This document shows positions 19,841 through 53,005 of a stretch of 64,000 bases of DNA, one piece after another. A program made the translations under genes and the position numbers. The notes beneath the pieces were generated by a model that saw nothing but the letters and a program-made list of their open reading frames with translations, did not search any database and had not been told where the DNA came from. Position 1 is the stretch's first letter. Each line of letters starts with the position of its first letter. The stretch spans positions 1,054,001-1,118,000 of the forward strand of contig NZ_CP139558.1 in NCBI RefSeq assembly GCF_034262375.1, in the 5' to 3' direction. The DNA is from Mucilaginibacter sabulilitoris (GTDB taxonomy: Bacteria; Bacteroidota; Bacteroidia; Sphingobacteriales; Sphingobacteriaceae).

Positions 19841-19914
19841 AGGGTAGTATATCAATTGGTCAGATTACCACATTTGGGATGTGGAGGCTCCCGGTTCGAG
19901 TCCGGGTTACCCTA
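19841..19914 (+). tRNA. tRNA-Pro (TGG)
   Basis: Acceptor AGGGTAG with TTACCCT (one G-U), D-arm TATC...GATT with one mismatch, anticodon stem CCACA/TGTGG with loop TTTGGGA (anticodon TGG, 19875-19877), T-arm CCCGG-TTCGAGT-CCGGG. CCA is not encoded. First of four tandem tRNAs. Confidence 0.85.
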
Positions 19915-19927
19915 CTTTGTTTGGTAA

Positions 19928-20000
19928 GGAAATATAGCTCAATGGTTAGAGCAACACCCTTATACGGTGCCGGTTACAGGTTCAAGTCCTGTTATTTCCA
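19928..20000 (+). tRNA. tRNA with anticodon TAT (Ile, AUA codon)
   Basis: Acceptor GGAAATA/TATTTCC is perfect; D-arm GCTC/GAGC; anticodon stem ACACC/GGTGC with one A-C mismatch at 27-43; loop CTTATAC gives anticodon TAT (19961-19963); T-arm ACAGG-TTCAAGT-CCTGT. Bacteria normally read AUA with a CAT tRNA modified by TilS, so a TAT anticodon is unusual. Confidence 0.8.
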
Positions 20001-20008
20001 CTATTGAT

Positions 20009-20082
20009 GGTCAGTTGCCCGAGTGGTTTAAGGGAGTCCTCTGCAAAAGGATTATTCGCAAGTTCGAATCTTGTACCGACCT
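20009..20082 (+). tRNA. tRNA-Cys (GCA)
   Basis: Acceptor GGTCAGT/ACCGACC with one A-C mismatch, D-arm CCC/GGG, anticodon stem GTCCT/AGGAT with loop CTGCAAA (anticodon GCA, 20043-20045), T-arm GCAAG-TTCGAAT-CTTGT. Discriminator T fits tRNA-Cys (U73). Confidence 0.82.
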
Positions 20083-20088
20083 CCAGAT

Positions 20089-20159
20089 TTTCCTATGGTG
20101 CAACGGTAGCACGTCAGATTCTGGCTCTGAAGATCGTGGTTCGAATCCATGTAAGAAAA
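20089..20159 (+). tRNA. tRNA-Gln (CTG)
   Basis: Acceptor TTTCCTA/TAAGAAA with one C-A mismatch, D-arm GTGC/GCAC, anticodon stem TCAGA/TCTGA with loop TTCTGGC (anticodon CTG, 20121-20123), T-arm CGTGG-TTCGAAT-CCATG. Only 6 bp separate it from the tRNA-Cys. Confidence 0.75.
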
Positions 20160-39769: not shown

Positions 39770-42700
39770 ATGAATATAACTTTACGGAACTACGATGTGC
39801 TTTATAAGTTAATGAAGGTCACATTCGGGTTGCTGTTTGTAGTATTGTGCCTTTCGGGTTCAGTATATGCAAAAGGCAATGAAAGCTACCACATAGCAGG
39901 TAGGATTTTAAAAGATGAAAACCTGCCGGTTACCATAACAGGAAAGGTAACGGATGAAAAAGGGCAGCCTTTGGTTGGTGTGAGCATATTGATTAAAGGA
40001 ACCAATAACGGCGCGGTTACCGATATAGAGGGGAAATTCAAACTTAGTGCTCCAAATGAAAAAGCCATCCTTTTATTCAGATACATAGGATATATCAACA
40101 AAGAGGTTGTGGTCGGAAATGCAAGCGTATTGAATGTCACACTGATAGCCGAACCCAAAAGCATCAACGAGATTGTTGTTGTTGGGTACAGCACACAAAG
40201 CAAACACAAACTCACCAGCGCCGTGGTTACCGTTTCAGGGGACGAACTGAACAAGCGGGTGGCCACATCTCCTGCAACCTTATTACAGGGCAAGCTTCCG
40301 GGTTTGCAGGTTGTTCAGGGCTCGGGTGAACCGGGAGCTGAAAACGTACAGCTCACCATCCGGGGAACGGGTACTTTCAGTGGTGCGGGTTCAAATCCTC
40401 TGGTTATTGTAGACGGGCTTCCGGGGAGTCTGGATGTACTTAACTCGAACGATATAGAATCGATTTCGGTATTGAAAGATGCATCATCTGCGGCGATTTA
40501 CGGGTCGCGCGGTGCAAATGGCGTGATAGTGGTTAAAACCAAAAAAGGCAAAGCCGGAAGCCTTGCTGTCCAATACACTTACAATTTCGGCATTTCCAAT
40601 GCGACAAAACTGCCGGACATCGTAACCAATTCGGCTACTTATATGCAGTTATCGAACGAAGCCCGTACCAATTCTTCATTAGCTCCGCTATATACCCAGG
40701 CTCAGATCGATTTATATCAAAATGCAACAGACCAGACGAAATATCCTAACCATAACTGGCTGAACGATATCTTCCGTACCGCTTACACCCAAAATCACTA
40801 CCTGAATATGAGCGGAGGTAAAGATAGTACAACCTACAGTGTAGGCATCGGCATTACCAATCAGCCAGGTGTTATGAAAGGGTTCGATTATTCAAAATAT
40901 ACACTTTCCCTGGGGCTGAATTCGAAACTTAATAAGCGAATAACGTTTGGAAGCGACATACAGATGCGCTACGGCAAAAAGCTTACACCTGAAAATGGCG
41001 CCGGCGACCAGTTCCTTTCTGCATTGGCCCAATCTCCTTTGTACCCGGCGCAGGTTGACGGCAAATGGATAAAGAAAGCCTATTCCAATGAGCTGGGCAA
41101 TAAAAATCCGGCGGCGATTGTAGGTGAAGATATCCGTACCCGCGGCGATGATAAATATATACAAGGCAACCTGTCTTTGGATATTGATCTTTTCAAAGGG
41201 CTGAGATGGGAGAATAAGGCGGGGTTTAATTACGGGACTTATAAATTCAATGATTTCAGGCCAATCATACCTACCTATTATTATAATGATATGAGTCCGG
41301 CCGGCAGCCTTGATGACGGTTCACCCGGTCTAAATGTAGGTAATTCGGATAATTTATATACAGTTTATTATAGCCAGTTGACCTATAAAAAGAGTTTTGG
41401 TGCTCACAACTTTTCCGCATTTGGAGGTTTTCAGCAGGAAAAAAACACTGCCAGTAATCTCAATGCATCAAGAACACAATATGTAACCAACTTTCTCAGG
41501 GAACTTGATGCAGGGCCTTCTGACGGCCAGACTAATAGCGGAACATCTTCGGCATGGGCAATCAGTTCTTTATATGGTAGTGCGAACTATGACTACGAGG
41601 ACAAATATTTGCTCGGAGCCAGCATCCGTTATGATGGGACATCCAGGTTACCCTCCGATACTCGTTACGGAACATTTTACTCATTTTCGGGCGGATGGCG
41701 AATTTCAAAAGAAAACTTCCTGAAAAATGTTTCCTGGTTAAATGACCTTAAGATTCGCGGTTCATGGGGTCAATTGGGGAATCAGAACATCGGAACCTAC
41801 CCATATCAGTCAACCTTATCGGGCGCTAATTATGCTTTTGGCGGCACAGTTAACTCCGGCTTTGTTTCCAATACGCTCGTTGATCCTAACCTTACCTGGG
41901 AAACTACACGGGTAGTTGATGTCGGTATTGATATGACTGTATTTAACGATAAGTTGATTTTCTCAGCAGATTATTTTAATAAATATACCTTCGATATTTT
42001 AAGGGGATCCCAGGTACCGTTCTATATTGGCCTTAACGCTCCTACCATAAATGATGGAGCACTGAGGAATAAAGGCTATGAATTCGCAGTTCAGTATAAT
42101 GATAAGATAGGTAAAGATTTTACTTATACTATTGGCTTAAACCTGCAAACCTATAAAAATAAACTTGAGCAGTATGGATCGAAAGATATCAGCGATCATA
42201 CCATCAGAGAAGAGGGGCATGAGCTTGATGCTTATTATATGTACGTTTGGGATGGCATATTCCAATCCCAGGCCGAGATTGACAATTCTCCCAAACAACC
42301 GGTTACACCTACTCCCGGTGATTTAAAAATAAAGGATGTAAACGGTGATGGGAAAATAGATGCCGATGACAGGACTTATGTAGGCGGTAAATTTCCCTCC
42401 TATCAATATTCCGCTAATTTGGGTGCCGGCTACAGGGGATTCGATTTCAGTGCACAGATCTATGGTTCGCAGGGGCAAAAGGCTTATGTAAACGGTTGGG
42501 GAATAGAACCTTTCAGGCAGGGTTCCGTACCGACAACCGATTGGCTAAACCGCTGGACACCAACCAATCATACGAATACCATGCCTAAGATCTATGTGGC
42601 CGATGGCTATGCCGCCGTACAGAACTATCCCTCAACTTATTTCCTGAAGGATGCGTCTTTCGTCCGGTTGAAAAGCCTCCAGCTTGGATATACTTTCCCA

Positions 42701-42874
42701 ACAGCCATACTGAACAAGATCTCCATTAAAAGCCTTCGTGTTTTCGTGGCTGCCGATAATGTGTTCACAATCAGCAAATATCCCGGTCTGGATCCTGAGC
42801 GTGTCGGAGACGGTACTTATGTAACCTATCCGCAAAACCGGACAATAACCTTTGGTGCTTCTGTCAAACTTTAA
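39770..42874 (+). CDS. SusC/RagA-family TonB-dependent transporter (PUL)
   Basis: 1034 residues. Signal region (LCLSGSVYAKG), carboxypeptidase-D-like domain (VTGKVTDEKGQPLVGVSILIKGTNNGAVTDIEGKF region, about 55-125), TonB-box region (INEIVVVGYSTQSK), plug (LTIRGTGTFSGAGSNPLVIVDG, DASSAAIYGSRGANGVIVVKT), then the beta-barrel ending TITFGASVKL. It imports oligosaccharides together with the SusD-like protein 20 bp downstream. Given the surrounding GH5/GH2/GH3/GH29 enzymes, a fucosylated xyloglucan-type oligosaccharide is likely, but that is inferred. Confidence 0.95.
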   Translation: MNITLRNYDVLYKLMKVTFGLLFVVLCLSGSVYAKGNESYHIAGRILKDENLPVTITGKVTDEKGQPLVGVSILIKGTNNGAVTDIEGKFKLSAPNEKAILLFRYIGYINKEVVVGNASVLNVTLIAEPKSINEIVVVGYSTQSKHKLTSAVVTVSGDELNKRVATSPATLLQGKLPGLQVVQGSGEPGAENVQLTIRGTGTFSGAGSNPLVIVDGLPGSLDVLNSNDIESISVLKDASSAAIYGSRGANGVIVVKTKKGKAGSLAVQYTYNFGISNATKLPDIVTNSATYMQLSNEARTNSSLAPLYTQAQIDLYQNATDQTKYPNHNWLNDIFRTAYTQNHYLNMSGGKDSTTYSVGIGITNQPGVMKGFDYSKYTLSLGLNSKLNKRITFGSDIQMRYGKKLTPENGAGDQFLSALAQSPLYPAQVDGKWIKKAYSNELGNKNPAAIVGEDIRTRGDDKYIQGNLSLDIDLFKGLRWENKAGFNYGTYKFNDFRPIIPTYYYNDMSPAGSLDDGSPGLNVGNSDNLYTVYYSQLTYKKSFGAHNFSAFGGFQQEKNTASNLNASRTQYVTNFLRELDAGPSDGQTNSGTSSAWAISSLYGSANYDYEDKYLLGASIRYDGTSRLPSDTRYGTFYSFSGGWRISKENFLKNVSWLNDLKIRGSWGQLGNQNIGTYPYQSTLSGANYAFGGTVNSGFVSNTLVDPNLTWETTRVVDVGIDMTVFNDKLIFSADYFNKYTFDILRGSQVPFYIGLNAPTINDGALRNKGYEFAVQYNDKIGKDFTYTIGLNLQTYKNKLEQYGSKDISDHTIREEGHELDAYYMYVWDGIFQSQAEIDNSPKQPVTPTPGDLKIKDVNGDGKIDADDRTYVGGKFPSYQYSANLGAGYRGFDFSAQIYGSQGQKAYVNGWGIEPFRQGSVPTTDWLNRWTPTNHTNTMPKIYVADGYAAVQNYPSTYFLKDASFVRLKSLQLGYTFPTAILNKISIKSLRVFVAADNVFTISKYPGLDPERVGDGTYVTYPQNRTITFGASVKL

Positions 42875-42894
42875 CCCAATTAAAGCATACCATT

Positions 42895-44454
42895 ATGAAT
42901 CTTTACAATAAGTATATACTCATGCTGATCATGTTATCAGTAATGCTGGCATCCTGCAAAAAAAGTTCGCTGAATCTGGATCCGCCTGATAAGCTATCAA
43001 CGCAGAATTTCTGGAAATCTGAAAGCGATGCGGACCTAGCCTTAACCGGATGTTACAACTTTTTATACACCTCCGGAGGAGGTTATTCTACTTCGCAATA
43101 CCAGGTCGTGGCCTGGGATAATTTCAGTGATAATTCTTATGGGCAATATAATTACGGGGGCGGAACAAGCGCATTATCCTCGGGCATTACAGCCGGCGTT
43201 TTTGATACCTACAACCTTTATCAATCCTCTTACTATGTCAATAATTATCGGGCGATAGCCTCCATTAATTATTTCCTGGCTAATGTAGATAAAGTGCTTA
43301 CAGGGGATAAGCTTAAACAGTATAAAGCCGAAGGCTATTTTCTTCGCGCCTTTAATTACTACTGGCTTGCTGTGTTATACGGCAATGTTATTATCACCAC
43401 GGCAGACCCATTTACACTTGATTATAATAAACACATGGCCAAATCAAGCAGGGCAGATGTTTTGAAACTGGTAGAAGCAGACCTGGACCTGGCAATTGCC
43501 GGCTTACCAGACGTTTCCTACAGCGGACATGCAGTTAAGGGTTCGGCGCAAGGTTACAAAGTAAGAGCGCTGTTATTTGAGAAAAAGTATACAGAGGCCG
43601 CCGCTCTCGCCAACCAAATTATAACCGGCGGAAAGTTTTCTTTGAATACATCTTATCCGGGCAACTTTTATAAGCCGGCTCAAAATAACAGCCCTGAGAT
43701 TATGTTTTCAGTAAAATACCAGCTACCTAATCTGTCGCATCAGGACAACGGGATCAGTGTTTCGTTACAACGCTGGAAAGGTGAACTGGGTACCCAGGAC
43801 CTGGTTAACGAATATGAAGCCGCAGATGGTAAAGACACAACCAGTTCCGCTGTTTATGTAAAGGGAAAACCTTATGATAACAGGGACCCGCGGATGCGTA
43901 TGACCTTGTTTTTCCCCGGCGATACAAAAGCCCAGGGATGGCCGTTCACAGGATCTTATGCGGTGGGTACTCCGGGAAAAGATTCATGGATCGTTGGTTA
44001 TTATCCAGTCAAGAAATGGCTTGATCCTACATTGGTTGACCCAGATTATGGAACGAAAGGCGATAATGATTTTGTTTTACTTCGTTATGCGGATATATTA
44101 CTAATGTATGCGGAAGCTCAAAATGAAGCGGCAGGACCTGATGCAAGTACCTACAACGCGATAAACCTGGTCAGGGCGCGGGTTAACATGCCGGCATTGT
44201 CTGCTGGTTTGTCACAAGCGCAGTTCCGGGAAAAGATCCGCCATGAGCGCCGTGTAGAGTTTGCTATGGAAGGGATCCGCTACTTCGATCTGAGAAGATG
44301 GGGTATCGCAACGCAGAAACTGAACGGCTTTGTTCAAAATCCTTTATTCCCTAACGTAAAAACGAAATATGCCGATAATTATGAGTTCTGGCCTATTCCA
44401 CAACCGGAAATTGACAGGAATTCACCTGAACTTGTTCAAAATCCGGGGTATTGA
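42895..44454 (+). CDS. SusD/RagB-family lipoprotein (PUL)
   Basis: 519 residues with a lipobox (MLASCKKSSLNLDPPDKLS). The N-terminal FWKSESDADLALTGCYNFLY and the C-terminal FREKIRHERRVEFAMEGIRYFDLRRWGIA with NPGY at the end are standard SusD features. It caps the SusC barrel encoded just upstream and binds the glycan at the cell surface. A group II intron begins 30 bp after its stop, pushing the likely operon terminator almost 4 kb downstream. Confidence 0.95.
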   Translation: MNLYNKYILMLIMLSVMLASCKKSSLNLDPPDKLSTQNFWKSESDADLALTGCYNFLYTSGGGYSTSQYQVVAWDNFSDNSYGQYNYGGGTSALSSGITAGVFDTYNLYQSSYYVNNYRAIASINYFLANVDKVLTGDKLKQYKAEGYFLRAFNYYWLAVLYGNVIITTADPFTLDYNKHMAKSSRADVLKLVEADLDLAIAGLPDVSYSGHAVKGSAQGYKVRALLFEKKYTEAAALANQIITGGKFSLNTSYPGNFYKPAQNNSPEIMFSVKYQLPNLSHQDNGISVSLQRWKGELGTQDLVNEYEAADGKDTTSSAVYVKGKPYDNRDPRMRMTLFFPGDTKAQGWPFTGSYAVGTPGKDSWIVGYYPVKKWLDPTLVDPDYGTKGDNDFVLLRYADILLMYAEAQNEAAGPDASTYNAINLVRARVNMPALSAGLSQAQFREKIRHERRVEFAMEGIRYFDLRRWGIATQKLNGFVQNPLFPNVKTKYADNYEFWPIPQPEIDRNSPELVQNPGY

Positions 44455-44464
44455 GCGCCATGAA

Positions 44465-44483
44465 CGATTTGCGCAGCAAATCG
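44465..44483. repeat. Palindrome directly before the outer intron
   Basis: CGATTTGC-GCA-GCAAATCG, a perfect 8-bp stem with a 3-nt loop, ends exactly at the intron's first base. Some group II introns insert next to hairpins such as terminators. A very similar hairpin (GATTTGC-GAA-GCAAATC) occurs at 25185-25201. Confidence 0.75.
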
Positions 44484-44999
44484 GTGCTGTTTGAATGATG
44501 AGGACAGGCCCCTCGGTATCGGCTTACAGGAGCAGGTACCAAACCGCTGCTAAGTTGCTCTGGTAAAGAGCCAGGGTGGGAAGCGTTAGCAGAGAAGGCA
44601 GTATTAAGCTGTCAGGTAAGTATAAAGAAGACGAATGCAAATGAACTGCCGAAGAGACGTCGAAAGGATTAGATGATGTCAAAAGTAAAGTACAGTATCA
44701 CTTTATTATCAGCAGGGAGGACGACCTGTTTACCGTCCCTGCGGCATCCGGCGTATAGGCAGCGTGAGCTTTATACAGGCATTCAAGCGGAACTTGGGAA
44801 CCTGTCGGAACGATGTGAAGAGAAAAGGTCAAGCGGAAGAACCCGTAAGTCCGAAACTATCGATGCGTACCACAGGGGCAGAGCCGCCCGTAGTAGTGAT
44901 GATAGCCTTGGAAACTTGGCAAGAGCGAAGGGGTGGCATTATCAGGCGCTGTACATTAATAGAAACTGTTCAAAGGGCAACCTACAGGAGGTATAAGAC

Positions 45000-45429
45000 A
45001 TGTATAGGCCAAAACCATATTGTATTTCGAAAAAGTCGGTGCAGGAAGCTTACTTGAAGATCAAAACCAACAAAGGGGCATCTGGTGTAGACCAGATGAG
45101 TATGGAAGCATTTGACCAACAGCCACAGAAACATCTGTATAAGCTATGGAACCAAATGAGTTCAGGCAGCTATATGCCCCCTGCGATTAAACTGGTGGAG
45201 ATACCCAAGAAAGATGGCGGTAAAAGGCCATTAGGTATACCTACCATAACCGACCGTATCGGACAAGCGGTGGTAGCCGGGATGTTGGGAAAGGTGGTCG
45301 ACAACCTTTTCCATGATGATTCCTACGGCTACCGGCCTAAGAAATCTGCGTTGCAGGCAGTTGCCAAAACCCGTGAAAGGTGTTGGGAATATCACTGGCT
45401 GCTGGACGTAGATATCAAAGGGTTCTTCG
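45000..45429 (+). CDS. ltrA: Outer intron reverse transcriptase/maturase, 5' exon
   Basis: N-terminal 143 codons plus one base of a group II intron RT. Motifs: NKGASGVDQMSMEAF (RT0/1), IPKKDGGKRPLGIPTITDR (RT2), and WLLDVDIKGFF, the block with the first catalytic Asp, where the coding sequence stops at the inner intron. Unspliced, translation continues only four codons to a TAA at 45441. Joining to 47341-48170 restores the frame (TTC-G/AC-AAC, giving Phe-Asp-Asn). A strong SD lies about 8 bp before the ATG, unlike most host genes here. Confidence 0.9.
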
Positions 45430-45948
45430 GTGCGCCGGGCTAAGTTCGGCATTTTCAGCAGGTGAGATTCCTGTCTCAGCAAGGGCTAAGCCTGCCCACT
45501 GAGAATCGAGCCTTGAGTGCGTTAGGTAACGAAGCGTGCTAAGCGTAGGCAGAGCGATGACCGGGCCACAACGCAAGTGAAGCTATTGAGCCTCGTTATT
45601 AGAGAACCGGAGGCCGACAGGCTCGAAGAACCTGGAAGGCAAAAGTAGGCACTCGCAGAAGGCGAGAGTGTTGGAGACTCCGGCGGGGTCTTAGGGCGTG
45701 GCACGGCAGAAACGGAAATGACGGAAACCCGGGAGATCCATACCAGTCCTTGTCGGGAAGATAAGGTACACCGGACTAAAGGAGCTCCGAAGAAAGGTGG
45801 AGGCTGATATGGAAGTCGGACCTGTTCATAGTATTCTGAGCGCAGGAAAGCTGCGTACACGGGGAAGGGACAGGCAGGAATGTAACACAGTAAAGGGACA
45901 CATGAACCTTACAAATTATGGAAACATGAACACAGAGAAGGAGAACGC

Positions 45949-47238
45949 ATGAAAACGCAACTGAGCAGTGTAGCCGTGAAGGCAAAATTAGACAAGAGGA
46001 CGGTGTTCACCTCTTTGGCGCATCTTTTAACACCAACTTTCTTAAAGGAAACATGGAAGAAGATGAACAAGAAAGGAGCGCCGGGAATCGACAAGGAAAC
46101 AATGGCAGCTTTTGCAGAAAAGCTGGAAGAAAGAGTACAAGAAATGCACGAACAATTACGAGCAGGTAAGTATTATGCGCCACCAGTACGCCGGGTAGAA
46201 ATACCCAAAGATGGAGCCAAAACGAGATTGTTGGGTATACCCACCGTTTCCGACCGGTTGCTGCAAGCTGCTGTAGCAAGGATACTGAATGCCGTGTTCG
46301 AGCCTGTCTTTCTGAACTCATCATGGGGTTACAGGCCAAAGCGAGATGCACATGGCGCGATAGGCGCATTACGAAGCCACATTATTGCAGGCAAGGTAAT
46401 GCAAGTCTATGAAGCAGATATACGTGCCTACTTTGACAGGGTAAATCATGATTGGTTAAGACAATTTCTAAAGCAGAAAATTGCAGACCCGGTAATACTC
46501 CGATTGGTTGACAAATGGCTCCGGGCGGGAATAATGTCCGACGGGCTGAAAATCAGTAAAGAAGACGGAGTACCACAGGGTGGCCCGGTATCGTGCATAC
46601 TGGCAAATGTATATCTGCATTACGTACTCGACCTATGGTTTGAAAAGAAGTTAAAAGCTTCTTGTAACGGCGAAGCACACCTGGTGCGTTACGTGGACGA
46701 TTTTGTGGCTTGTTTCCAATATGAAAGAGACGCGATTCGCTTTGGCAAGGAACTGAAGGAACGCTTCCAGGAGTTTCATCTGGAACTGGCAGAAGAAAAG
46801 ACAAGGTCAATGCCATTCGGGCGGTTCGCCAGAGAACGGGGCAAAAGCTTTAACCAACCTGTTGGAAAGTTCGACTTTCTTGGCTTCGCTCACATCTGTG
46901 GGACAGACCATGAAGGTAAGTTCGTTCTAATTCGAAAACCCAGACAGAAAAGCTGTCGAAAGTTCCTTGACAGGGTAAAGGAATGGTTGAAACGACATCC
47001 ACACTATGATGTGTGGGATCAGCAGAGGCAAATACTGTCGATGTTGAGAGGTTTCTATCAATACTACGCCTTAACACATTGTGTGGAGAAATTGAACCTG
47101 ATAAGGCTCTATGTGAGAAGGTGTTGGCGCTTTGCTATCAGACGCAAAAGCCAGCGCACTCGCTCGCAATGGGGATATCTGGACAATAAAAAGTGGTTTG
47201 AAATGCCCTATCCACAATTGTTACACGCTAATATCTAA
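45949..47238 (+). CDS. ltrA: Inner intron reverse transcriptase/maturase
   Basis: 429 residues, intact. Motifs: NKKGAPGIDKETMAAF, RVEIPKDGAKTRLLGIPTVSDRLLQ, the catalytic block VYEADIRAYFDRVNHDWL, DGVPQGGPVSCILANVYLHYVLD, LVRYVDDFVACF (YVDD) and FDFLGFAH, followed by a maturase X domain ending in VRRCWRFAIRRKSQR. No HNH endonuclease domain is evident. A good SD (AAGGAGA) precedes the ATG. It is divergent from the outer intron's RT (YADD type), so the two introns are not recent copies of each other. Confidence 0.93.
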   Translation: MKTQLSSVAVKAKLDKRTVFTSLAHLLTPTFLKETWKKMNKKGAPGIDKETMAAFAEKLEERVQEMHEQLRAGKYYAPPVRRVEIPKDGAKTRLLGIPTVSDRLLQAAVARILNAVFEPVFLNSSWGYRPKRDAHGAIGALRSHIIAGKVMQVYEADIRAYFDRVNHDWLRQFLKQKIADPVILRLVDKWLRAGIMSDGLKISKEDGVPQGGPVSCILANVYLHYVLDLWFEKKLKASCNGEAHLVRYVDDFVACFQYERDAIRFGKELKERFQEFHLELAEEKTRSMPFGRFARERGKSFNQPVGKFDFLGFAHICGTDHEGKFVLIRKPRQKSCRKFLDRVKEWLKRHPHYDVWDQQRQILSMLRGFYQYYALTHCVEKLNLIRLYVRRCWRFAIRRKSQRTRSQWGYLDNKKWFEMPYPQLLHANI

Positions 47239-47267
47239 TTATGCAAAGAATGGACAAACATCCTGAA

Positions 47268-47300
47268 GAGCCCGTTGCGGGAAATCTGCACGGCGGGTTC
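47268..47300 (+). ncRNA. Inner intron domain V
   Basis: GAGCCCGTTGCGGGAAATCT and the complementary CACGGCGGGTTC form the conserved 34-nt-class catalytic hairpin with a GAAA-like tetraloop region. Domain VI with the bulged branch-point A follows immediately. Confidence 0.85.
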
Positions 47301-47340
47301 TGTGGGGGAAGCAAGGGAGTAATCTGTGCTTCTACCCGAC

Positions 47341-48170
47341 ACAACATCCCGCATGATCTGCTCATGCTGTCTGTTGAGAAACATGCAGCGGACGAATGGA
47401 TGGTAGTATACATCAAAAGATGGCTGGTAGCACCCTTGCAACTGGAAGATGGAACGATAGTGCAAAGGACGAAAGGCGTGCCGCAAGGCTCGGTGATCGG
47501 TCCCATACTATCAAACCTTTACCTGCATTACGCAATGGATATGTGGCTGATGAACAACTATCCCGACTTAGCTTTCGAGCGGTATGCGGATGATGCAGTC
47601 ATTCATTGCAGGCGAGAAGAACAAGCTATCTGTTTAAAGGAACTACTGGCTAAGCGACTGAAGGATTGCGGACTGGAGATGCACGAAGACAAAACAAAGA
47701 TCGTCTACTGCAAAGACAGCAACCGTACCAACAAAAGCCCCAAAGTAGTATCGTTCGACTTCCTTGGTTACACGTTCAAGCCGCGACAAGCGCAGAACAG
47801 CCAACGGAAAGAGGACTTTACCAACTTCCTGCCGGGCGTAAGCACAAAGGCAATGACAGCGATGAATGAAAAGCTGAACAACATGCCGATACTGCGCATA
47901 CCAGGCATCGAAGTCGAGGCAGTTGCCAAAGCCATAAATCCTGTCCTGCAAGGTTGGATTAACTACTATGGCAAGTTCTATGCGACAAGGTTGAGAGACT
48001 TTATGCGCACGATAAATGCCAAAATAGCCAACTGGGCAATACGGAAATACAAAAAGCTTAGAACCAGCGTCACCAGAGGAATGAAATGGGTAAGCAGCCT
48101 TTACAGGCGTAAACCCAACTTGTTCGCACACTGGGCATTCGGTGCTAAGCCATTAATGGAACTACGATAA
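47341..48170 (+). CDS. ltrA: Outer intron reverse transcriptase/maturase, 3' exon
   Basis: Remaining 276 codons of the split RT: NIPHDLLMLSVEKH continues the catalytic block, then KGVPQGSVIGPILSNLYLHYAMD, FERYADDAVIHC (YADD catalytic pair), FDFLGYTFKPR and a maturase-specific C-terminus (VLQGWINYYGKFY...WAIRKYKKL). The open frame also extends back to 47241 through intron sequence, but that part encodes the inner intron's domain V/VI and is not protein-like. The spliced product would be 419 residues, a usual length for this family. Confidence 0.9.
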
Positions 48171-48173
48171 TGG

Positions 48174-48207
48174 GAGCCGTATGCGCGGAGACGTGCACGT
48201 ACGGTTC
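48174..48207 (+). ncRNA. Outer intron domain V
   Basis: GAGCCGTATGCGCGGAGACG and GTGCACGTACGGTTC form the catalytic domain V hairpin, 3 nt after the RT stop. The CAGGC/GCCTG domain VI stem with a candidate bulged A (48240) follows. Confidence 0.85.
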
Positions 48208-48265
48208 TGATAGAATCTCAGGCTGCAATGCCTGGGTTTACTAACTAATATCTAAATGATTAACT

Positions 48266-48853: not shown

Positions 48854-51800
48854 ATGAGATATAAATTAGCCCTAAGCGCTCTTAGCTTACTGTTGATGCT
48901 TCGTGTTGTTTTTGCGCAAAATGGCAAATACCAATTTTCACAACTGAATATAAGCAATGGTTTGTCTCACAATCAGGTCAATTGTGTTTTTAAAGATTCT
49001 GAAGGTTTTATGTGGTTCGGCACTGCCTCGGGCCTTAATCGTTACGATGGTTATACGTTAAAAATATTCAAACATGATGCTGATGATAAAAAATCCCTTA
49101 TCGGCGATTTTATAACCGGTATTTTTGAAGGGCCGGATAAAAAGCTATGGGTATCAACCCGAAGTGGCTATTGTTTTTATAACCCCGAAACAGAGCAGTT
49201 TGATAGTGATATTTCACTCATGGCCGGTTCTTTAAAAATCCCGGGATATCCCTATGTCTCTAAAATGATCCGCAACGGCAAAGGCGAGTTTTGGTTTGTC
49301 TGCCCGGATTCTGGCCTTTACAGGTATAATGAATTAAACAAAACAACCAGGCGGTACTATCACCATCGATCCGGTTCATTATTGCATTCAAATCTTATTG
49401 CAGATATTACACGGGATGCAGTTGGTAATATATGGCTGGTATACCATGATGGCGTGGTTGAAAAACTTGACATCAAACAGAACAAAATTACTTATCACAC
49501 CGATCTTTTTAGTAAATCTGCCAGTAATAAGGAGGGATATTACGCAATTACCGTAGACCGGGATAATGATTTATGGTTATACTCTCCTAATTTTAATTCC
49601 GGCGCATATTATTACAGTCCTTCTTCGGGAGCATTCAGGCACATTACCGATGAATCGGGCGTAGTAAAATTAAAGTCCAATAACATTAGCAATATTATCC
49701 AGGCTGATGATGGCCTGATATGGATAGCCACCGATCATGGCGGTATAAACGTGCTGGATAAAAAAAGTTTCATGGTCACCTATTTATTGAACCGGGAGGA
49801 TGATGGCAAATCGCTAAGTCAAAACAGTGTGACCCTTTATAAAGATGATTCCGGTATTATGTGGGCCGGCACATTTAAAGAAGGGGTAAGTTATTATCAT
49901 AAAAATATTATCAGGTTCCCGCTCTACAAGCATTTTGCTTCTGATCCCAGAAGTTTAAGTTTTGAAGATGTTAATAAGTTTGCCGAAGATAAAAGTGGCA
50001 ATCTGTGGATTGGTACAAACGGCGGCGGTCTGGTTTACTTTGACCGTAAAGCGGGTAGTTTCAAACAATATAAACATGAGCCGGACAATCCAAACAGCCT
50101 CAGTAGTGATATTATCGTCACTTTATGTATTGATCATGATCAGAAGTTATGGATAGGTACTTATTTTGGTGGGCTGGACTGTTTTGACGGAAAGCAATTC
50201 ATTCATTATAAACATGACGATAAAGTAGCCGGCAGCATTGCTGATAACCGGGTATGGAATATTCTTGAAGATTCTTCCAACAGGTTATGGGTAGGAACAT
50301 TTGCAGCAGGGCTTCAAATATTTGACAGGACCAAAAAAATGTTTTCCCCATCATTTAAGCAAACAGATATCAGGAGCCCTTATGTATCCGCGCTTTTTGA
50401 GGACAGGAAGGGTAATATTTGGGTGGGGGGATACTTTGGGATAGATGTAATTTTAAAAAAGACAGGTCGTGTAATTCACTATAGCGCTGGAAAAAAAGAT
50501 GCAAACAATTTGATCAGTAACAGTATCAATGGTATCAACCAGGATAGCCGCGGGCTTATCTGGATAGCAACGCGTGATGGACTGAGCATGCTGAACCCGG
50601 AAACCGGTTTTTTTAAATCCTTAAGAAAGCAGAATGGACTGCCGGACAATACCGTACTGGATATACTGGAGGACAACCAGGGGGCAATCTGGTTAAGTAC
50701 GGCAAACGGGTTGAGCAGGGTAACACTTACTCCTGATAAAGCTGCTTACACGTTCAGGTTTGAAAACTTTGATGAAACTGACGGCCTGCAGGGCCGGGAA
50801 TTTAATGTGCAGGCGGCACTCAAAACCAGTAAGGGCAAATTAATATTTGGAGGAGGGCATGGTTTTAACATTTTCGATCCTTTAACTATACATGCCAATA
50901 TATATAAACCTAAATTGGTCTTCACTGATTTTTTGCTGTTTAACAAAAGCATCAAGGCTAAAGAGGAAGTTAATGGACATATTGTATTATCAAAAGCCAT
51001 TACGGCAACGCGCACGTTGACATTAAAGCACAGCGAAAACGTATTTACCATTGAATTTGCGGCATTGAACTTCTTTAACCCTAATAAGGTAAAACATCAG
51101 TACATGATGGAAGGCTTTGACAAGGACTGGCTTGATGCGAATAATGCCACCCGAAAAGCCACCTATACCAACCTTGACGGTGGCGATTATATTTTTAAAG
51201 TGCGGGCGATCAGTCAGGAAGGAAGATGGGAGCCTGATTACATAACGTTAAGAATTAAAGTATTGCCCCCGTTCTGGAAGTCGACCATAGCCTATTTTAT
51301 TTACATACTGCTTTTGGCCGGAATTCTCTTTTTCATGCGCCGGCGTGGAATTCAAAAAATAAGAAGGCAGTTTGAAATTGAAAAAGAGAAGCAGGATGCT
51401 AAATTATTAATTGAGCATGAACGACAGGAAGCCAGGCGTATGCATGAACTTGATATGATGAAGATCAAGTTTTTTACAAATGTAAGCCATGAATTCAGAA
51501 CCCCCTTATCATTAATCATAGCCCCCGTTGATAAGATTTTAAAGCATACTGAGGCGGAGGAACAAAGACACCAACTGCAGTTGATCAACCGTAATGCTAA
51601 ACGTTTATTAAATATGGTAAACCAGTTGCTTGACTTCAGAAAAATGGAAGTACAAGAGCTCCGGCTGCATACCAGGAGCGGGGACATTATAGGCTTTATC
51701 GAAGAAATCGTGTATTCCTTCTCGGATATTGCGGAGAAAAAGTACATCAGACTGGTATTTGACTCGGAAATCCAAAGCCTTGTAATCAACTTTGATCCCG

Positions 51801-53005
51801 ATAAAATAGAGCGCATCATCTTCAATCTGCTTTCCAATGCATTTAAATTTACACAGGACGGCGGACATATTAGTGTTTTATTGGCGATGAGGGAAGAAAC
51901 ACCTGGTAAACGGTTACTGGAGATCAAGGTTATTGATACAGGTATCGGAATCCCCCTGGATAAGCAGGACAGAATTTTTGAACGTTTTTTTCAAAATGAA
52001 GTGCCTGGCTCTATGGTTAATCAGGGCAGTGGTATAGGTTTGTCCATAACAAGGGAATTTGTCCGGCTGCATAATGGCGAAATATCAGTAGAGAGCGAAC
52101 CGGGACAGGGTAGTTATTTTACAATACTGTTGCCTGTTGACTTAACAACTGAGGAACAATTAGCCGCCCATGCATCTGATATTTCCGAAGCGGCACTAAT
52201 AGAAAGCCAGACCTGGTTACCGGCAGGAACCGGCAGCACAATTAAAAAACTGACTGTTTTACTGGTTGAAGACAATGAAGATTTTCGTTTTTACCTGAAG
52301 GACAATTTAAATGAAATCTTTCATATCATCGAGGCTGCTAATGGCAGGGAGGGATGGCAGAAGACCCTGGCCCTGCACCCTAACCTCGTAGTCAGTGATA
52401 TCAGTATGCCCGAGATGAATGGTATTGACCTATGTCGGAAAATACGTAATGATAAACGGACATCACACATACCTGTGGTATTACTTACCGCTGTTACCGG
52501 GGATGAGCAGCAATTGCAGGGGCTTGAAACCGGGGCCAATGACTACCTCACCAAGCCTTTCAATTTCGAGATACTGACGTCGAAATTGAAAAATATACTG
52601 GCCATGCAGGAAGATATGCGGAAAACTTATCAAAAGCAACTTGAGGTTAGGCCAACAGAAATAGTGTCCGATTCATTTGATGAAGCGTTTATAAAAAAAG
52701 CAGTACAATTGATTGAAAAAAATATGGACAACGCCGATTTCTCGGTAGAAGAACTGAGCAGTGAATTGTGCGTAAGCCGGGTAACATTGTATAAAAGAGC
52801 GTTGGCGTTAACAGGAAAGTCACCGGTAGACCTTATCCGGTCTATTCGTCTGAAGCGCGCTGCTCAATTACTTGAAAGTTCACAGCTAACTATATCTCAG
52901 ATAGCATACAAAGTTGGTTTTAAAAGCCAAAAGTATTTCGTGCGATGCTTTAAAGCAGAATTTAATTGCCTTCCGTCTGCATATGCAGGTAATAAAAATA
53001 AGTAA
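48854..53005 (+). CDS. Hybrid two-component system sensor-regulator (HTCS)
   Basis: 1383 residues. Signal peptide (VVFAQNG), about 14 Reg_prop beta-propeller repeats (e.g. GLSHNQVNCVFKDSEGFMWFG, then LWIGT repeats), a Y_Y_Y domain (about 720-800), one membrane helix (about 812-832), a HisKA domain with the phospho-His near 879 (FFTNVSHEFRTPLS), HATPase (N- and G-boxes, DTGIGIP, GSGIGLSI), a receiver with Asp about 1181 (VVSDISMPEMNG), and a C-terminal AraC HTH (RAAQLLESSQLTISQIAYKVGF). It senses an oligosaccharide in the periplasm and activates PUL genes on either side. Confidence 0.95.
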   Translation: MRYKLALSALSLLLMLRVVFAQNGKYQFSQLNISNGLSHNQVNCVFKDSEGFMWFGTASGLNRYDGYTLKIFKHDADDKKSLIGDFITGIFEGPDKKLWVSTRSGYCFYNPETEQFDSDISLMAGSLKIPGYPYVSKMIRNGKGEFWFVCPDSGLYRYNELNKTTRRYYHHRSGSLLHSNLIADITRDAVGNIWLVYHDGVVEKLDIKQNKITYHTDLFSKSASNKEGYYAITVDRDNDLWLYSPNFNSGAYYYSPSSGAFRHITDESGVVKLKSNNISNIIQADDGLIWIATDHGGINVLDKKSFMVTYLLNREDDGKSLSQNSVTLYKDDSGIMWAGTFKEGVSYYHKNIIRFPLYKHFASDPRSLSFEDVNKFAEDKSGNLWIGTNGGGLVYFDRKAGSFKQYKHEPDNPNSLSSDIIVTLCIDHDQKLWIGTYFGGLDCFDGKQFIHYKHDDKVAGSIADNRVWNILEDSSNRLWVGTFAAGLQIFDRTKKMFSPSFKQTDIRSPYVSALFEDRKGNIWVGGYFGIDVILKKTGRVIHYSAGKKDANNLISNSINGINQDSRGLIWIATRDGLSMLNPETGFFKSLRKQNGLPDNTVLDILEDNQGAIWLSTANGLSRVTLTPDKAAYTFRFENFDETDGLQGREFNVQAALKTSKGKLIFGGGHGFNIFDPLTIHANIYKPKLVFTDFLLFNKSIKAKEEVNGHIVLSKAITATRTLTLKHSENVFTIEFAALNFFNPNKVKHQYMMEGFDKDWLDANNATRKATYTNLDGGDYIFKVRAISQEGRWEPDYITLRIKVLPPFWKSTIAYFIYILLLAGILFFMRRRGIQKIRRQFEIEKEKQDAKLLIEHERQEARRMHELDMMKIKFFTNVSHEFRTPLSLIIAPVDKILKHTEAEEQRHQLQLINRNAKRLLNMVNQLLDFRKMEVQELRLHTRSGDIIGFIEEIVYSFSDIAEKKYIRLVFDSEIQSLVINFDPDKIERIIFNLLSNAFKFTQDGGHISVLLAMREETPGKRLLEIKVIDTGIGIPLDKQDRIFERFFQNEVPGSMVNQGSGIGLSITREFVRLHNGEISVESEPGQGSYFTILLPVDLTTEEQLAAHASDISEAALIESQTWLPAGTGSTIKKLTVLLVEDNEDFRFYLKDNLNEIFHIIEAANGREGWQKTLALHPNLVVSDISMPEMNGIDLCRKIRNDKRTSHIPVVLLTAVTGDEQQLQGLETGANDYLTKPFNFEILTSKLKNILAMQEDMRKTYQKQLEVRPTEIVSDSFDEAFIKKAVQLIEKNMDNADFSVEELSSELCVSRVTLYKRALALTGKSPVDLIRSIRLKRAAQLLESSQLTISQIAYKVGFKSQKYFVRCFKAEFNCLPSAYAGNKNK

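What the first reader, a model, noticed from the sequence alone, without database searches (positions are those of the whole stretch)
44484..48245. Nested group II introns (twintron) with exact restoration of the outer RT frame
The outer intron's RT ORF stops four codons after ...DIKGFF. A GTGCG start (45430), a complete RT, domain V (47268-47300), domain VI with a bulged A (47334) and an AC end (47340) follow, after which the missing RT part resumes at NIPHDLL. Counting bases: 45000-45429 is 143 codons plus one base, and 47341 supplies the other two (G+AC = Asp). The spliced ORF is 419 codons without a stop. Nested group II introns have been described in a few bacteria such as Thermosynechococcus elongatus; one sitting in a Bacteroidota PUL would be notable.
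Basis: partly seen in the sequence, partly recalled or inferred. Interest (0 to 1): 0.93.

Follow-up and report, generated by a model that had tools for sequence, protein, structure and literature searches.

The report
Nested introns parked at susD stops
In this bacterial genome one mobile intron sits inside the reverse-transcriptase gene of another, and the outer one belongs to a lineage found exactly inside the stop codon of nutrient-uptake susD genes, where it brings a substitute stop codon of its own and so likely spreads from one susD gene to the next at little cost to its host.

Summary
Confirmed, with corrected ends and a larger context. The inner group II intron is 45430-47340: a perfect 9-bp EBS1/IBS1 match fits its site, and joining 45429 to 47341 restores a 419-codon RT. 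The outer intron is 44453-48246, not 44484-48245: it starts GAGCG after the first base of the susD stop codon and ends before AA. The twintron occurs twice in this genome, at two very different susD genes, with four differences in 3,794 bases. Seven ORF-less relatives (679 nt) lie at the same point in seven other susD genes. Relatives in Pedobacter, Mucilaginibacter, Parapedobacter, Muricauda and Chitinophaga do the same. Among 100 class members with a readable start, the 15 that begin GAG are at susD ends and none of the 85 that begin GTG is. EBS1 pairs with the last Gly-Tyr codons in 152 of 156 positions over 26 introns, one of them retargeted to Trp. Unspliced, 21 of 21 introns read leave a TGA stop; spliced, TAA, TGA or TAG. 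Splicing and mobility are inferred, not observed.

The parts
42895..44454 (+). host gene: SusD-family protein ending ..LVQNPGY; its stop TGA is exon T (44452) plus intron GA (44453-44454)
   Evidence: PF07980 match in the own-genome scan at C1:1097696-1098451, i.e. window 43696-44451
44453..48246 (+). outer group II intron (GAGCG ... ACTAACT), 3,794 nt with the inner intron
   Evidence: ends shared with genomic copy B and relatives; Rfam RF01999 and RF00029
44447..44452 (+). IBS1 of the outer intron (GGTATT: last two bases of the Gly codon, the Tyr codon, first base of the stop)
44694..44699 (+). EBS1 of the outer intron (AGTATC) in a stem-loop; 6 of 6 pairs with IBS1 at both genomic copies
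45000..45429 (+). outer intron RT, 5' part (143 codons plus one base)
   Evidence: Pfam RVT_1 E=1.6e-12
45421..45429 (+). IBS1 of the inner intron (GGTTCTTCG), inside the outer RT codons for Gly-Phe-Phe-Asp
45430..47340 (+). inner group II intron (GTGCG ... CCCGAC), 1,911 nt
   Evidence: Rfam RF02005 and RF00029; the only other copy in this genome, identical, is inside twintron copy B
45624..45632 (+). EBS1 of the inner intron (CGAAGAACC), perfect 9-bp complement of its IBS1
45949..47238 (+). inner intron RT/maturase, 429 aa
   Evidence: Pfam RVT_1 E=7.9e-28; GIIM 21.1 bits, just under its cut-off of 23
47268..47300 (+). inner domain V; predicted branch-point A of domain VI at 47334, 7 nt from the 3' end
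47341..48170 (+). outer intron RT, 3' part (resumes NIPHDLL.., YADD, X domain)
   Evidence: Pfam RVT_1 E=2.5e-21 and GIIM E=2.1e-13
48174..48207 (+). outer domain V; predicted branch-point A of domain VI at 48240, 7 nt from the 3' end
48247..48248 (+). 3' exon AA that would complete the TAA stop of susD after splicing
   Evidence: the four orthologous sites read are empty and show TATT|AA

Best explanation
The window holds one group II intron (45430-47340) inserted in the reverse-transcriptase ORF of another (44453-48246), and the outer one lies between the first and second base of a susD stop codon, where pairing of its EBS1 loop with the last Gly-Tyr codons likely directed its insertion. Inferred: the inner intron, with its own RT/maturase, splices first and so restores the outer RT. 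That RT would then help splice and mobilise the outer intron, and possibly the seven ORF-less introns, into further susD genes. Shown by sequence: the intron starts GA, so the unspliced susD message still ends in TGA. Splicing would give TAA here (TAA, TGA or TAG in relatives), so SusD is unchanged either way. The two copies arose by insertion of the composite, or by insertion of the outer intron followed by homing of the inner one; these cannot be told apart.
For: Rfam architecture. Open joined ORF and perfect 9-bp inner EBS1/IBS1. Two twintron copies at very different susD genes, with flank identity ending at the intron. Seven ORF-less introns in seven susD stop codons, six identical and one with one change. 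All nine own-genome sites adjoin PF07980 matches. Same site in nine named loci and in 15 of 15 GAG-starting class members, against 0 of 85 GTG-starting ones. The upstream frame is SusD_RagB above the Pfam cut-off in 20 of 20 scanned. EBS1/IBS1 paired in 152 of 156 cells over 26 introns, 0 of 10,000 shuffles as high, and an ACCAAC/GTTGGT switch at a Trp-ending susD. Unspliced TGA in 21 of 21 and a restored stop in 21 of 21. The four best-matching orthologous sites are empty and read TATT|AA. RTs of the GAG introns form one group with 100/99 support, 10 of 25 rows.
Against: No RNA or mobility data. The outer RT is broken in the DNA, so the outer intron could be dead. The two outer copies differ at four bases, all within 156 bases of the RT, three of them changing amino acids, which could mean decay. 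The outer 3' end is CU, not the usual AY. Four of 156 EBS1/IBS1 cells do not pair, three of them at the Gly third base. Of the 26 uninterrupted own-genome susD ends parsed, 10 pair fully with the ORF-less EBS1 yet are empty, and none pairs fully with the twintron EBS1. The shuffles and Fisher tests ignore relatedness of copies. 27 of 127 examined hits had no readable start, and 39 of 166 non-own hits (my count of the listings) were not examined. 3' ends were found with end patterns chosen by eye.
Confidence: 0.85

Rival explanations
1. The composite is a fossil: the inner intron landed in and killed the outer RT, neither element splices now, and the two copies are relics.
For: The outer RT is interrupted in both copies. 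Four clustered differences, three amino-acid changing, could be decay.
Against: The inner ORF and the joined outer ORF are open, and both domain V-VI modules score above Rfam's cut-off. The inner copies are identical over 1,911 bases. The inner EBS1 pairs perfectly over 9 bp. Seven related ORF-less introns are near-identical, so something probably moved them recently.
Confidence: 0.2
2. The introns at susD stops are kept because they regulate the end of the susCD transcript (for example polarity on downstream PUL genes), not only because the site is harmless.
For: The site is the end of a susCD pair; nine of about 92 susD genes carry one.
Against: Only a minority of susD genes has one, the four orthologous sites read are empty, and sequences downstream differ.
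Confidence: 0.08
3. The two twintrons come from a segmental duplication of a susD locus, not from intron mobility.
For: Both copies lie at a susD 3' end with nearly identical sequence.
Against: Identity stops at the intron on both sides apart from the conserved end of susD and the first bases of the 3' exon (AAT), and the two susD proteins are very different.
Confidence: 0.02
4. The outer intron starts at GTGCTG (44484), and its closeness to the susD stop is a coincidence.
For: GTG resembles the usual 5' consensus GUGYG (passages of PMC4424553 and PMC4028801).
Against: Copy B shares the 31 bases upstream right up to the stop codon, and relatives begin at the same point in other susD genes. EBS1 pairs with the bases before 44453. 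Empty sites read TATT|AA.
Confidence: 0.02
5. Assembly chimera.
For: None found.
Against: Single-contig genome; the same composite at two loci with distinct flanks and exact junctions.
Confidence: 0.01

Closest known systems
Thermosynechococcus elongatus twintrons (TeI3 inside TeI4; PMC2882425, passages read)
   Same: one mobile group II intron inserted at a conserved site of another's ORF, in several copies; the authors propose this as a way to proliferate
   Different: there the inner introns lack an ORF and insert between two start codons, so that the outer RT could also start from the second ATG; here the inner intron has its own RT and splits the outer RT at the DIKGFFD motif
Methanosarcina acetivorans nested introns (Dai and Zimmerly 2003: only its title seen, in a reference list; text not held; described in a passage of PMC4424553)
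   Same: group II introns homing into other group II introns, by the title into related intron ORFs
   Different: up to five introns nested by repeated homing with no coding exons; here two classes with different Rfam 5' domains (RF02005 inside RF01999), the outer one tied to a protein gene family
Azotobacter groEL intron near or at the termination codon (a passage in PMC4465626; its original description is recalled, not read)
   Same: group II intron at the stop codon of a host gene
   Different: one gene; here many susD paralogues in several genera, with a GA start that itself supplies the stop
Trichodesmium twintron (PMC4649490, passages read)
   Same: bacterial group II twintron in a protein-coding gene
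   Different: there sequential splicing in vivo was shown; here nothing has been measured, and the coding frame is untouched because the site is the stop codon
GTG-starting relatives of the outer intron (RF01999 class and related RTs)
   Same: same 5' domain model or related RT; six of the 12 RT-bearing ones with a readable GTG start sit right after an [YF]xDD-coding motif, in five cases inside a frame that Pfam calls RVT_1, so they too target codons of a conserved protein motif
   Different: start GTG, and none examined lies at a susD stop

Membership tests
Group II intron (inner element) | 5' domain and domain V-VI module recognised by Rfam, bulged A 7 nt from the 3' end | tested here: met
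   RF02005 and RF00029 above gathering score; A47334
Group II intron (inner element) | GUGYG ... AY ends, EBS1/IBS1 pairing, RT/maturase ORF | tested here: met
   GTGCG, GAC, 9-bp pairing; RVT_1, GIIM just under its cut-off
Group II intron (outer element) | 5' domain and domain V-VI module recognised by Rfam, RT with X domain, EBS1/IBS1 pairing | tested here: met
   RF01999 and RF00029, RVT_1 and GIIM, 6 of 6 pairs
Group II intron with standard ends (a typical, not an invariant, trait) | GUGYG at the 5' end and AY at the 3' end of the outer intron | tested here: not met
   GAGCG and CU; members of this lineage with a readable start have A at position 2, so it is filed as a variant
Twintron | one intron inserted in another, exact removal restores the outer one | tested here: met
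   joined RT of 419 codons, uninterrupted homologues
Twintron | stepwise splicing in RNA | not testable with these tools
   no RNA data
Class C introns (insertion after terminators or attC; passage of PMC4424553) | insertion after a terminator hairpin | tested here: not met
   insertion is inside a susD stop codon, straight after coding sequence, in every copy whose site was read; no separate terminator scan was run

The most novel reading that the evidence does not exclude
A lineage of group II introns found in several Bacteroidota families has become a parasite of one protein family: it reads the Gly-Tyr or Gly-Trp codons and first stop base of susD genes with EBS1, supplies a replacement stop through a U-to-A change at intron position 2, and so moves unseen from one nutrient-uptake locus to the next. 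In this genome an ORF-less fleet of seven depends on an RT that is itself readable only after a second, unrelated intron has spliced out: a three-layer dependence.
Probability: 0.6. Interest if true: 0.85.

Novelty: new variant of a known kind. Interest (0 to 1): 0.76.

Why it matters
It would show how a mobile ribozyme can use a paralogous gene family as a safe landing field: the target is conserved because the protein's C-terminus is, it is repeated (about 92 susD genes here), and the stop codon makes insertion silent. Natural EBS1 changes that follow the target codons, including a Tyr-to-Trp switch, are a ready-made retargeting experiment. The twintron makes a testable case of one retroelement controlling another's enzyme. 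Such introns would be easy to overlook, because they leave the SusD protein unchanged.

Tried and rejected
Looking for the inner intron elsewhere. In 301 family genomes no DNA copy outside the own genome's twintrons; four other genomes gave only 38-103 base matches. In 395 phylum genomes 13 others had a protein match at E 1e-60, all at 37-40% identity. None in plasmids at E 1e-100. Eight viral-contig loci at 35-46%, not pursued.

EBS1. A best-pairing search gave spurious hexamers outside the loop; replaced by reading the aligned loop columns. As a check I looked by eye at the seven GTG introns whose loop was printed. Four of one type (L143, L147, L162, L235) pair with their own exon over 6-7 of 7 bases; three (L193, L251, L254) show no clear pairing in that reading.

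Script slips. One search printed TAC for L165 because its end pattern was two bases short; one search shows the real end GAC|AG, a TAG stop. Branch distances of 3 and 5 printed are the script taking a later TACT or the short end; read by eye the A is at -7 in these too. One search counted 8 susD-like ends of 100, but one (L210, a 62-codon frame with start GATAT) is a loose-pattern false hit. One GTG hit flagged as susD-like (L141) is another protein whose frame runs on. L250 is listed as GAG at a non-susD end only because of an N gap; I take it to be the locus L039, whose first stretch is at NPGY.

Tree groups. Of the 10 rows labelled GAG nine have the GAG start read; L038 begins inside the intron and was put there by similarity. 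Of the 15 others 12 have GTG read; L056, L073 and L083 had no start found.

susD ends. Of 40 stretches fetched one was the wrong end; 39 were read, 26 parsed and 13 dropped by the pattern. Among the 26, 12 end in Tyr, 13 in Trp and 1 in Phe, against 9 Tyr of 9 intron-bearing genes; Fisher p = 0.005. The sample followed HMM rank, so this is weak support.
Full report
OBSERVATION. Rfam places RF01999 at 44500-44617 and RF00029 at 48172-48246 (outer), and RF02005 at 45465-45698 and RF00029 at 47266-47340 (inner). The outer RT ORF stops four codons after DIKGFF. Joining 45429 to 47341 gives G+AC = Asp and a 419-codon frame without an internal stop. Pfam finds RVT_1 in both outer halves and GIIM in the second. 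The 12 relatives aligned in A2 carry one ORF through this point, and the DNA of seven relatives read there is uninterrupted. The inner EBS1 (45624-45632) is a perfect 9-bp complement of the nine bases before the insertion.

TRUE OUTER ENDS. The genome (G000, one contig of 7.55 Mb) has a second copy of the whole twintron. The two share 3,794 bases with four differences, all within 47596-47751, three of them changing amino acids. Comparison shows that the intron starts at 44453 with GAGCG, directly after the first base of the susD stop codon, and ends at 48246. The two susD proteins are otherwise very different and the sequences downstream differ after AAT, so this is insertion, not duplication of a region.

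THE SITE. Seven further elements match the 5' part of the outer intron at 73%. They are 679 nt long with no RT (the RVT_1 matches in the genome are in the twintrons and one other locus). Six are identical and one has one change, and each lies between T and AA of the stop codon of a different susD gene ending QNPGY or QNPNY. The genome has 93 PF07980 rows, one gene counted twice, so about 92 susD genes; nine carry such an intron, and all nine adjoin a PF07980 match. A search with the joined flanks found matches in 20 other genomes of 149 of the genus. The four best are empty sites that read TATT|AA; the weaker ones were not read.

THE LINEAGE. Among 14 Bacteroidota loci that encode a relative of the outer RT, nine (Pedobacter, Mucilaginibacter, Parapedobacter, Muricauda, Chitinophaga, one unplaced Bacteroidetes MAG) show the GAG start at a susD end. 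Two more (L038, L042) lie at contig edges, and three (L055, L063, L085) start GTG and lie elsewhere. To avoid conditioning on the site I searched RF01999 in 395 phylum, 100 genus and 301 family genomes (samples overlap). These gave 166 distinct hits outside the own genome by my count of the listings; I examined 127, and 100 had a start that a pattern could read. Fifteen begin GAG and lie at susD ends (14 directly, one through an assembly gap). Eighty-five begin GTG and none lies at that point of a susD-like frame. The frame upstream is SusD_RagB above the Pfam cut-off in 20 of 20 GAG introns scanned. The RTs of GAG introns form one side of a branch with 100/99 support in a tree of 25 rows.

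RECOGNITION. In an aligned stem-loop of domain I six bases (mostly ARUANC) pair with the last six exon bases G-N-TAY-T. Over 26 introns 152 of 156 cells pair, against a mean of 139.6 for EBS1 loops dealt out anew and none of 10,000 as high (related copies are not independent). The fifth base mostly follows the Gly third base and pairs with it in 23 of 26: U with A or G (twintrons), G with C or T (ORF-less), C with G (Chitinophaga). One ORF-less intron (L253) sits at a susD ending in Trp, and its loop reads ACCAAC, six Watson-Crick pairs with GTTGGT.

CONSEQUENCE FOR THE HOST. In 21 of 21 introns with both ends read, the unspliced message ends SusD with TGA (exon T plus intron GA), and the spliced one would end with TAA (17), TGA (3) or TAG (1; L165, corrected). 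GTG starts would give TGT, a sense codon. The start consensus is GUGYG (passages of PMC4424553 and PMC4028801), so the A at position 2 is a lineage trait that fits its niche. That position 2 is not part of the known epsilon pairing is recalled.

MECHANISM, shown and inferred. Shown: nesting, frames, complementarity, sites, stop logic. Inferred: the inner intron splices first with its own RT/maturase; only then can the outer RT be made. That RT then serves the outer intron and may serve the ORF-less ones, whose EBS1 differs in one base. The two composites arose by joint movement or by homing of the inner intron into an outer copy.

A SECOND TWINTRON, AND KIN THAT NEST. In Parapedobacter soli (L045) a susD-stop intron of the same lineage is interrupted in domain V by another intron (RF02003, GTGCGTCC ... 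CTAC, open frame of 457 codons), after which domain VI resumes. So nesting has happened at least twice in this lineage, with different guests. Some GTG-starting kin of the outer intron are themselves guests. Of 12 RT-bearing relatives with a readable GTG start, six sit straight after an [YF]xDD-coding motif, five of them in a frame that Pfam calls RVT_1 up to profile position 155 (L050's 78-codon frame had no match). Three of the 85 GTG hits show such a motif too, one of them as xDG (L143, L147, L235). Homing of introns into RT ORFs is a known pattern (Dai and Zimmerly 2003, title only).

PRIOR ART. Twintrons are known in Thermosynechococcus, Methanosarcina, Trichodesmium and Wolbachia (passages of PMC2882425, PMC4424553, PMC4649490, PMC8919778). 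Ten searches of the held library listed no paper on group II introns at susD stop codons. Several listings were capped (for example 20 of 45, 10 of 588). The direct one (group II intron and susD) gave three papers; I looked at passages of two, which do not link the two, and the third was seen as a listing only. Most subscription papers are not held. A groEL intron in Azotobacter is the nearest single-gene precedent (passage of PMC4465626).

HOST. This is an inference.

Noticed in passing
L045 5458-9272 (Parapedobacter soli): A second, different twintron of the same lineage: an RF02003 intron with a 457-codon frame splits domain V of a susD-stop intron.
   Followed up: partly
L085, L050, L051, L057, L060, L068 (GTG-starting RT-bearing relatives): These introns sit right after [YF]xDD-coding motifs; five of the six upstream frames are RVT_1. 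Half of the 12 GTG-starting kin read are thus nested at what looks like the catalytic motif of an RT gene.
   Followed up: partly
L253 (genome G099): ORF-less susD-stop intron at a susD ending in Trp (NPGW), with EBS1 changed to ACCAAC to match.
   Followed up: yes
L025 2343-6005 (own genome C1:7276842-7280504): Another group II RT (513 aa ORF) whose domain V lies beyond an ORF that looks by eye like a transposase: perhaps an intron interrupted by an insertion sequence.
   Followed up: no
L026 2743-2839 (own genome C1:4932742-4932838): Isolated group II domain V-VI beside two pieces of what looks by eye like an integrase gene; no 5' domain found there by Rfam.
   Followed up: no
window 47596-47751: All four differences between the two twintron copies fall in 156 bases of the outer RT 3' part; perhaps gene conversion or decay.
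   Followed up: partly
L030, L164, L175, L253: ORF-less susD-stop introns of G000, G089, G234 and G099 are 75-93% identical, so the ORF-less form is shared and not new. Among the RF01999 hits listed for G089 (1), G234 (4) and G099 (1) no GAG-starting RT-bearing partner was seen; one G234 hit (L184) had no start readable by the pattern.
   Followed up: partly
L039 (Pedobacter sp. Leaf216): The susD-stop intron has an assembly gap in its 5' part and no domain V was seen after its RT: probably broken or misassembled.
   Followed up: no
window 39770-44454 and 48854-53005: By sequence a SusC/SusD pair upstream and a 1383-aa sensor/regulator-like ORF downstream of the twintron: a PUL-like setting (ORFs; only SusD checked by Pfam).
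   Followed up: no
window 19841-20159: Cluster of four tRNA genes.
   Followed up: no
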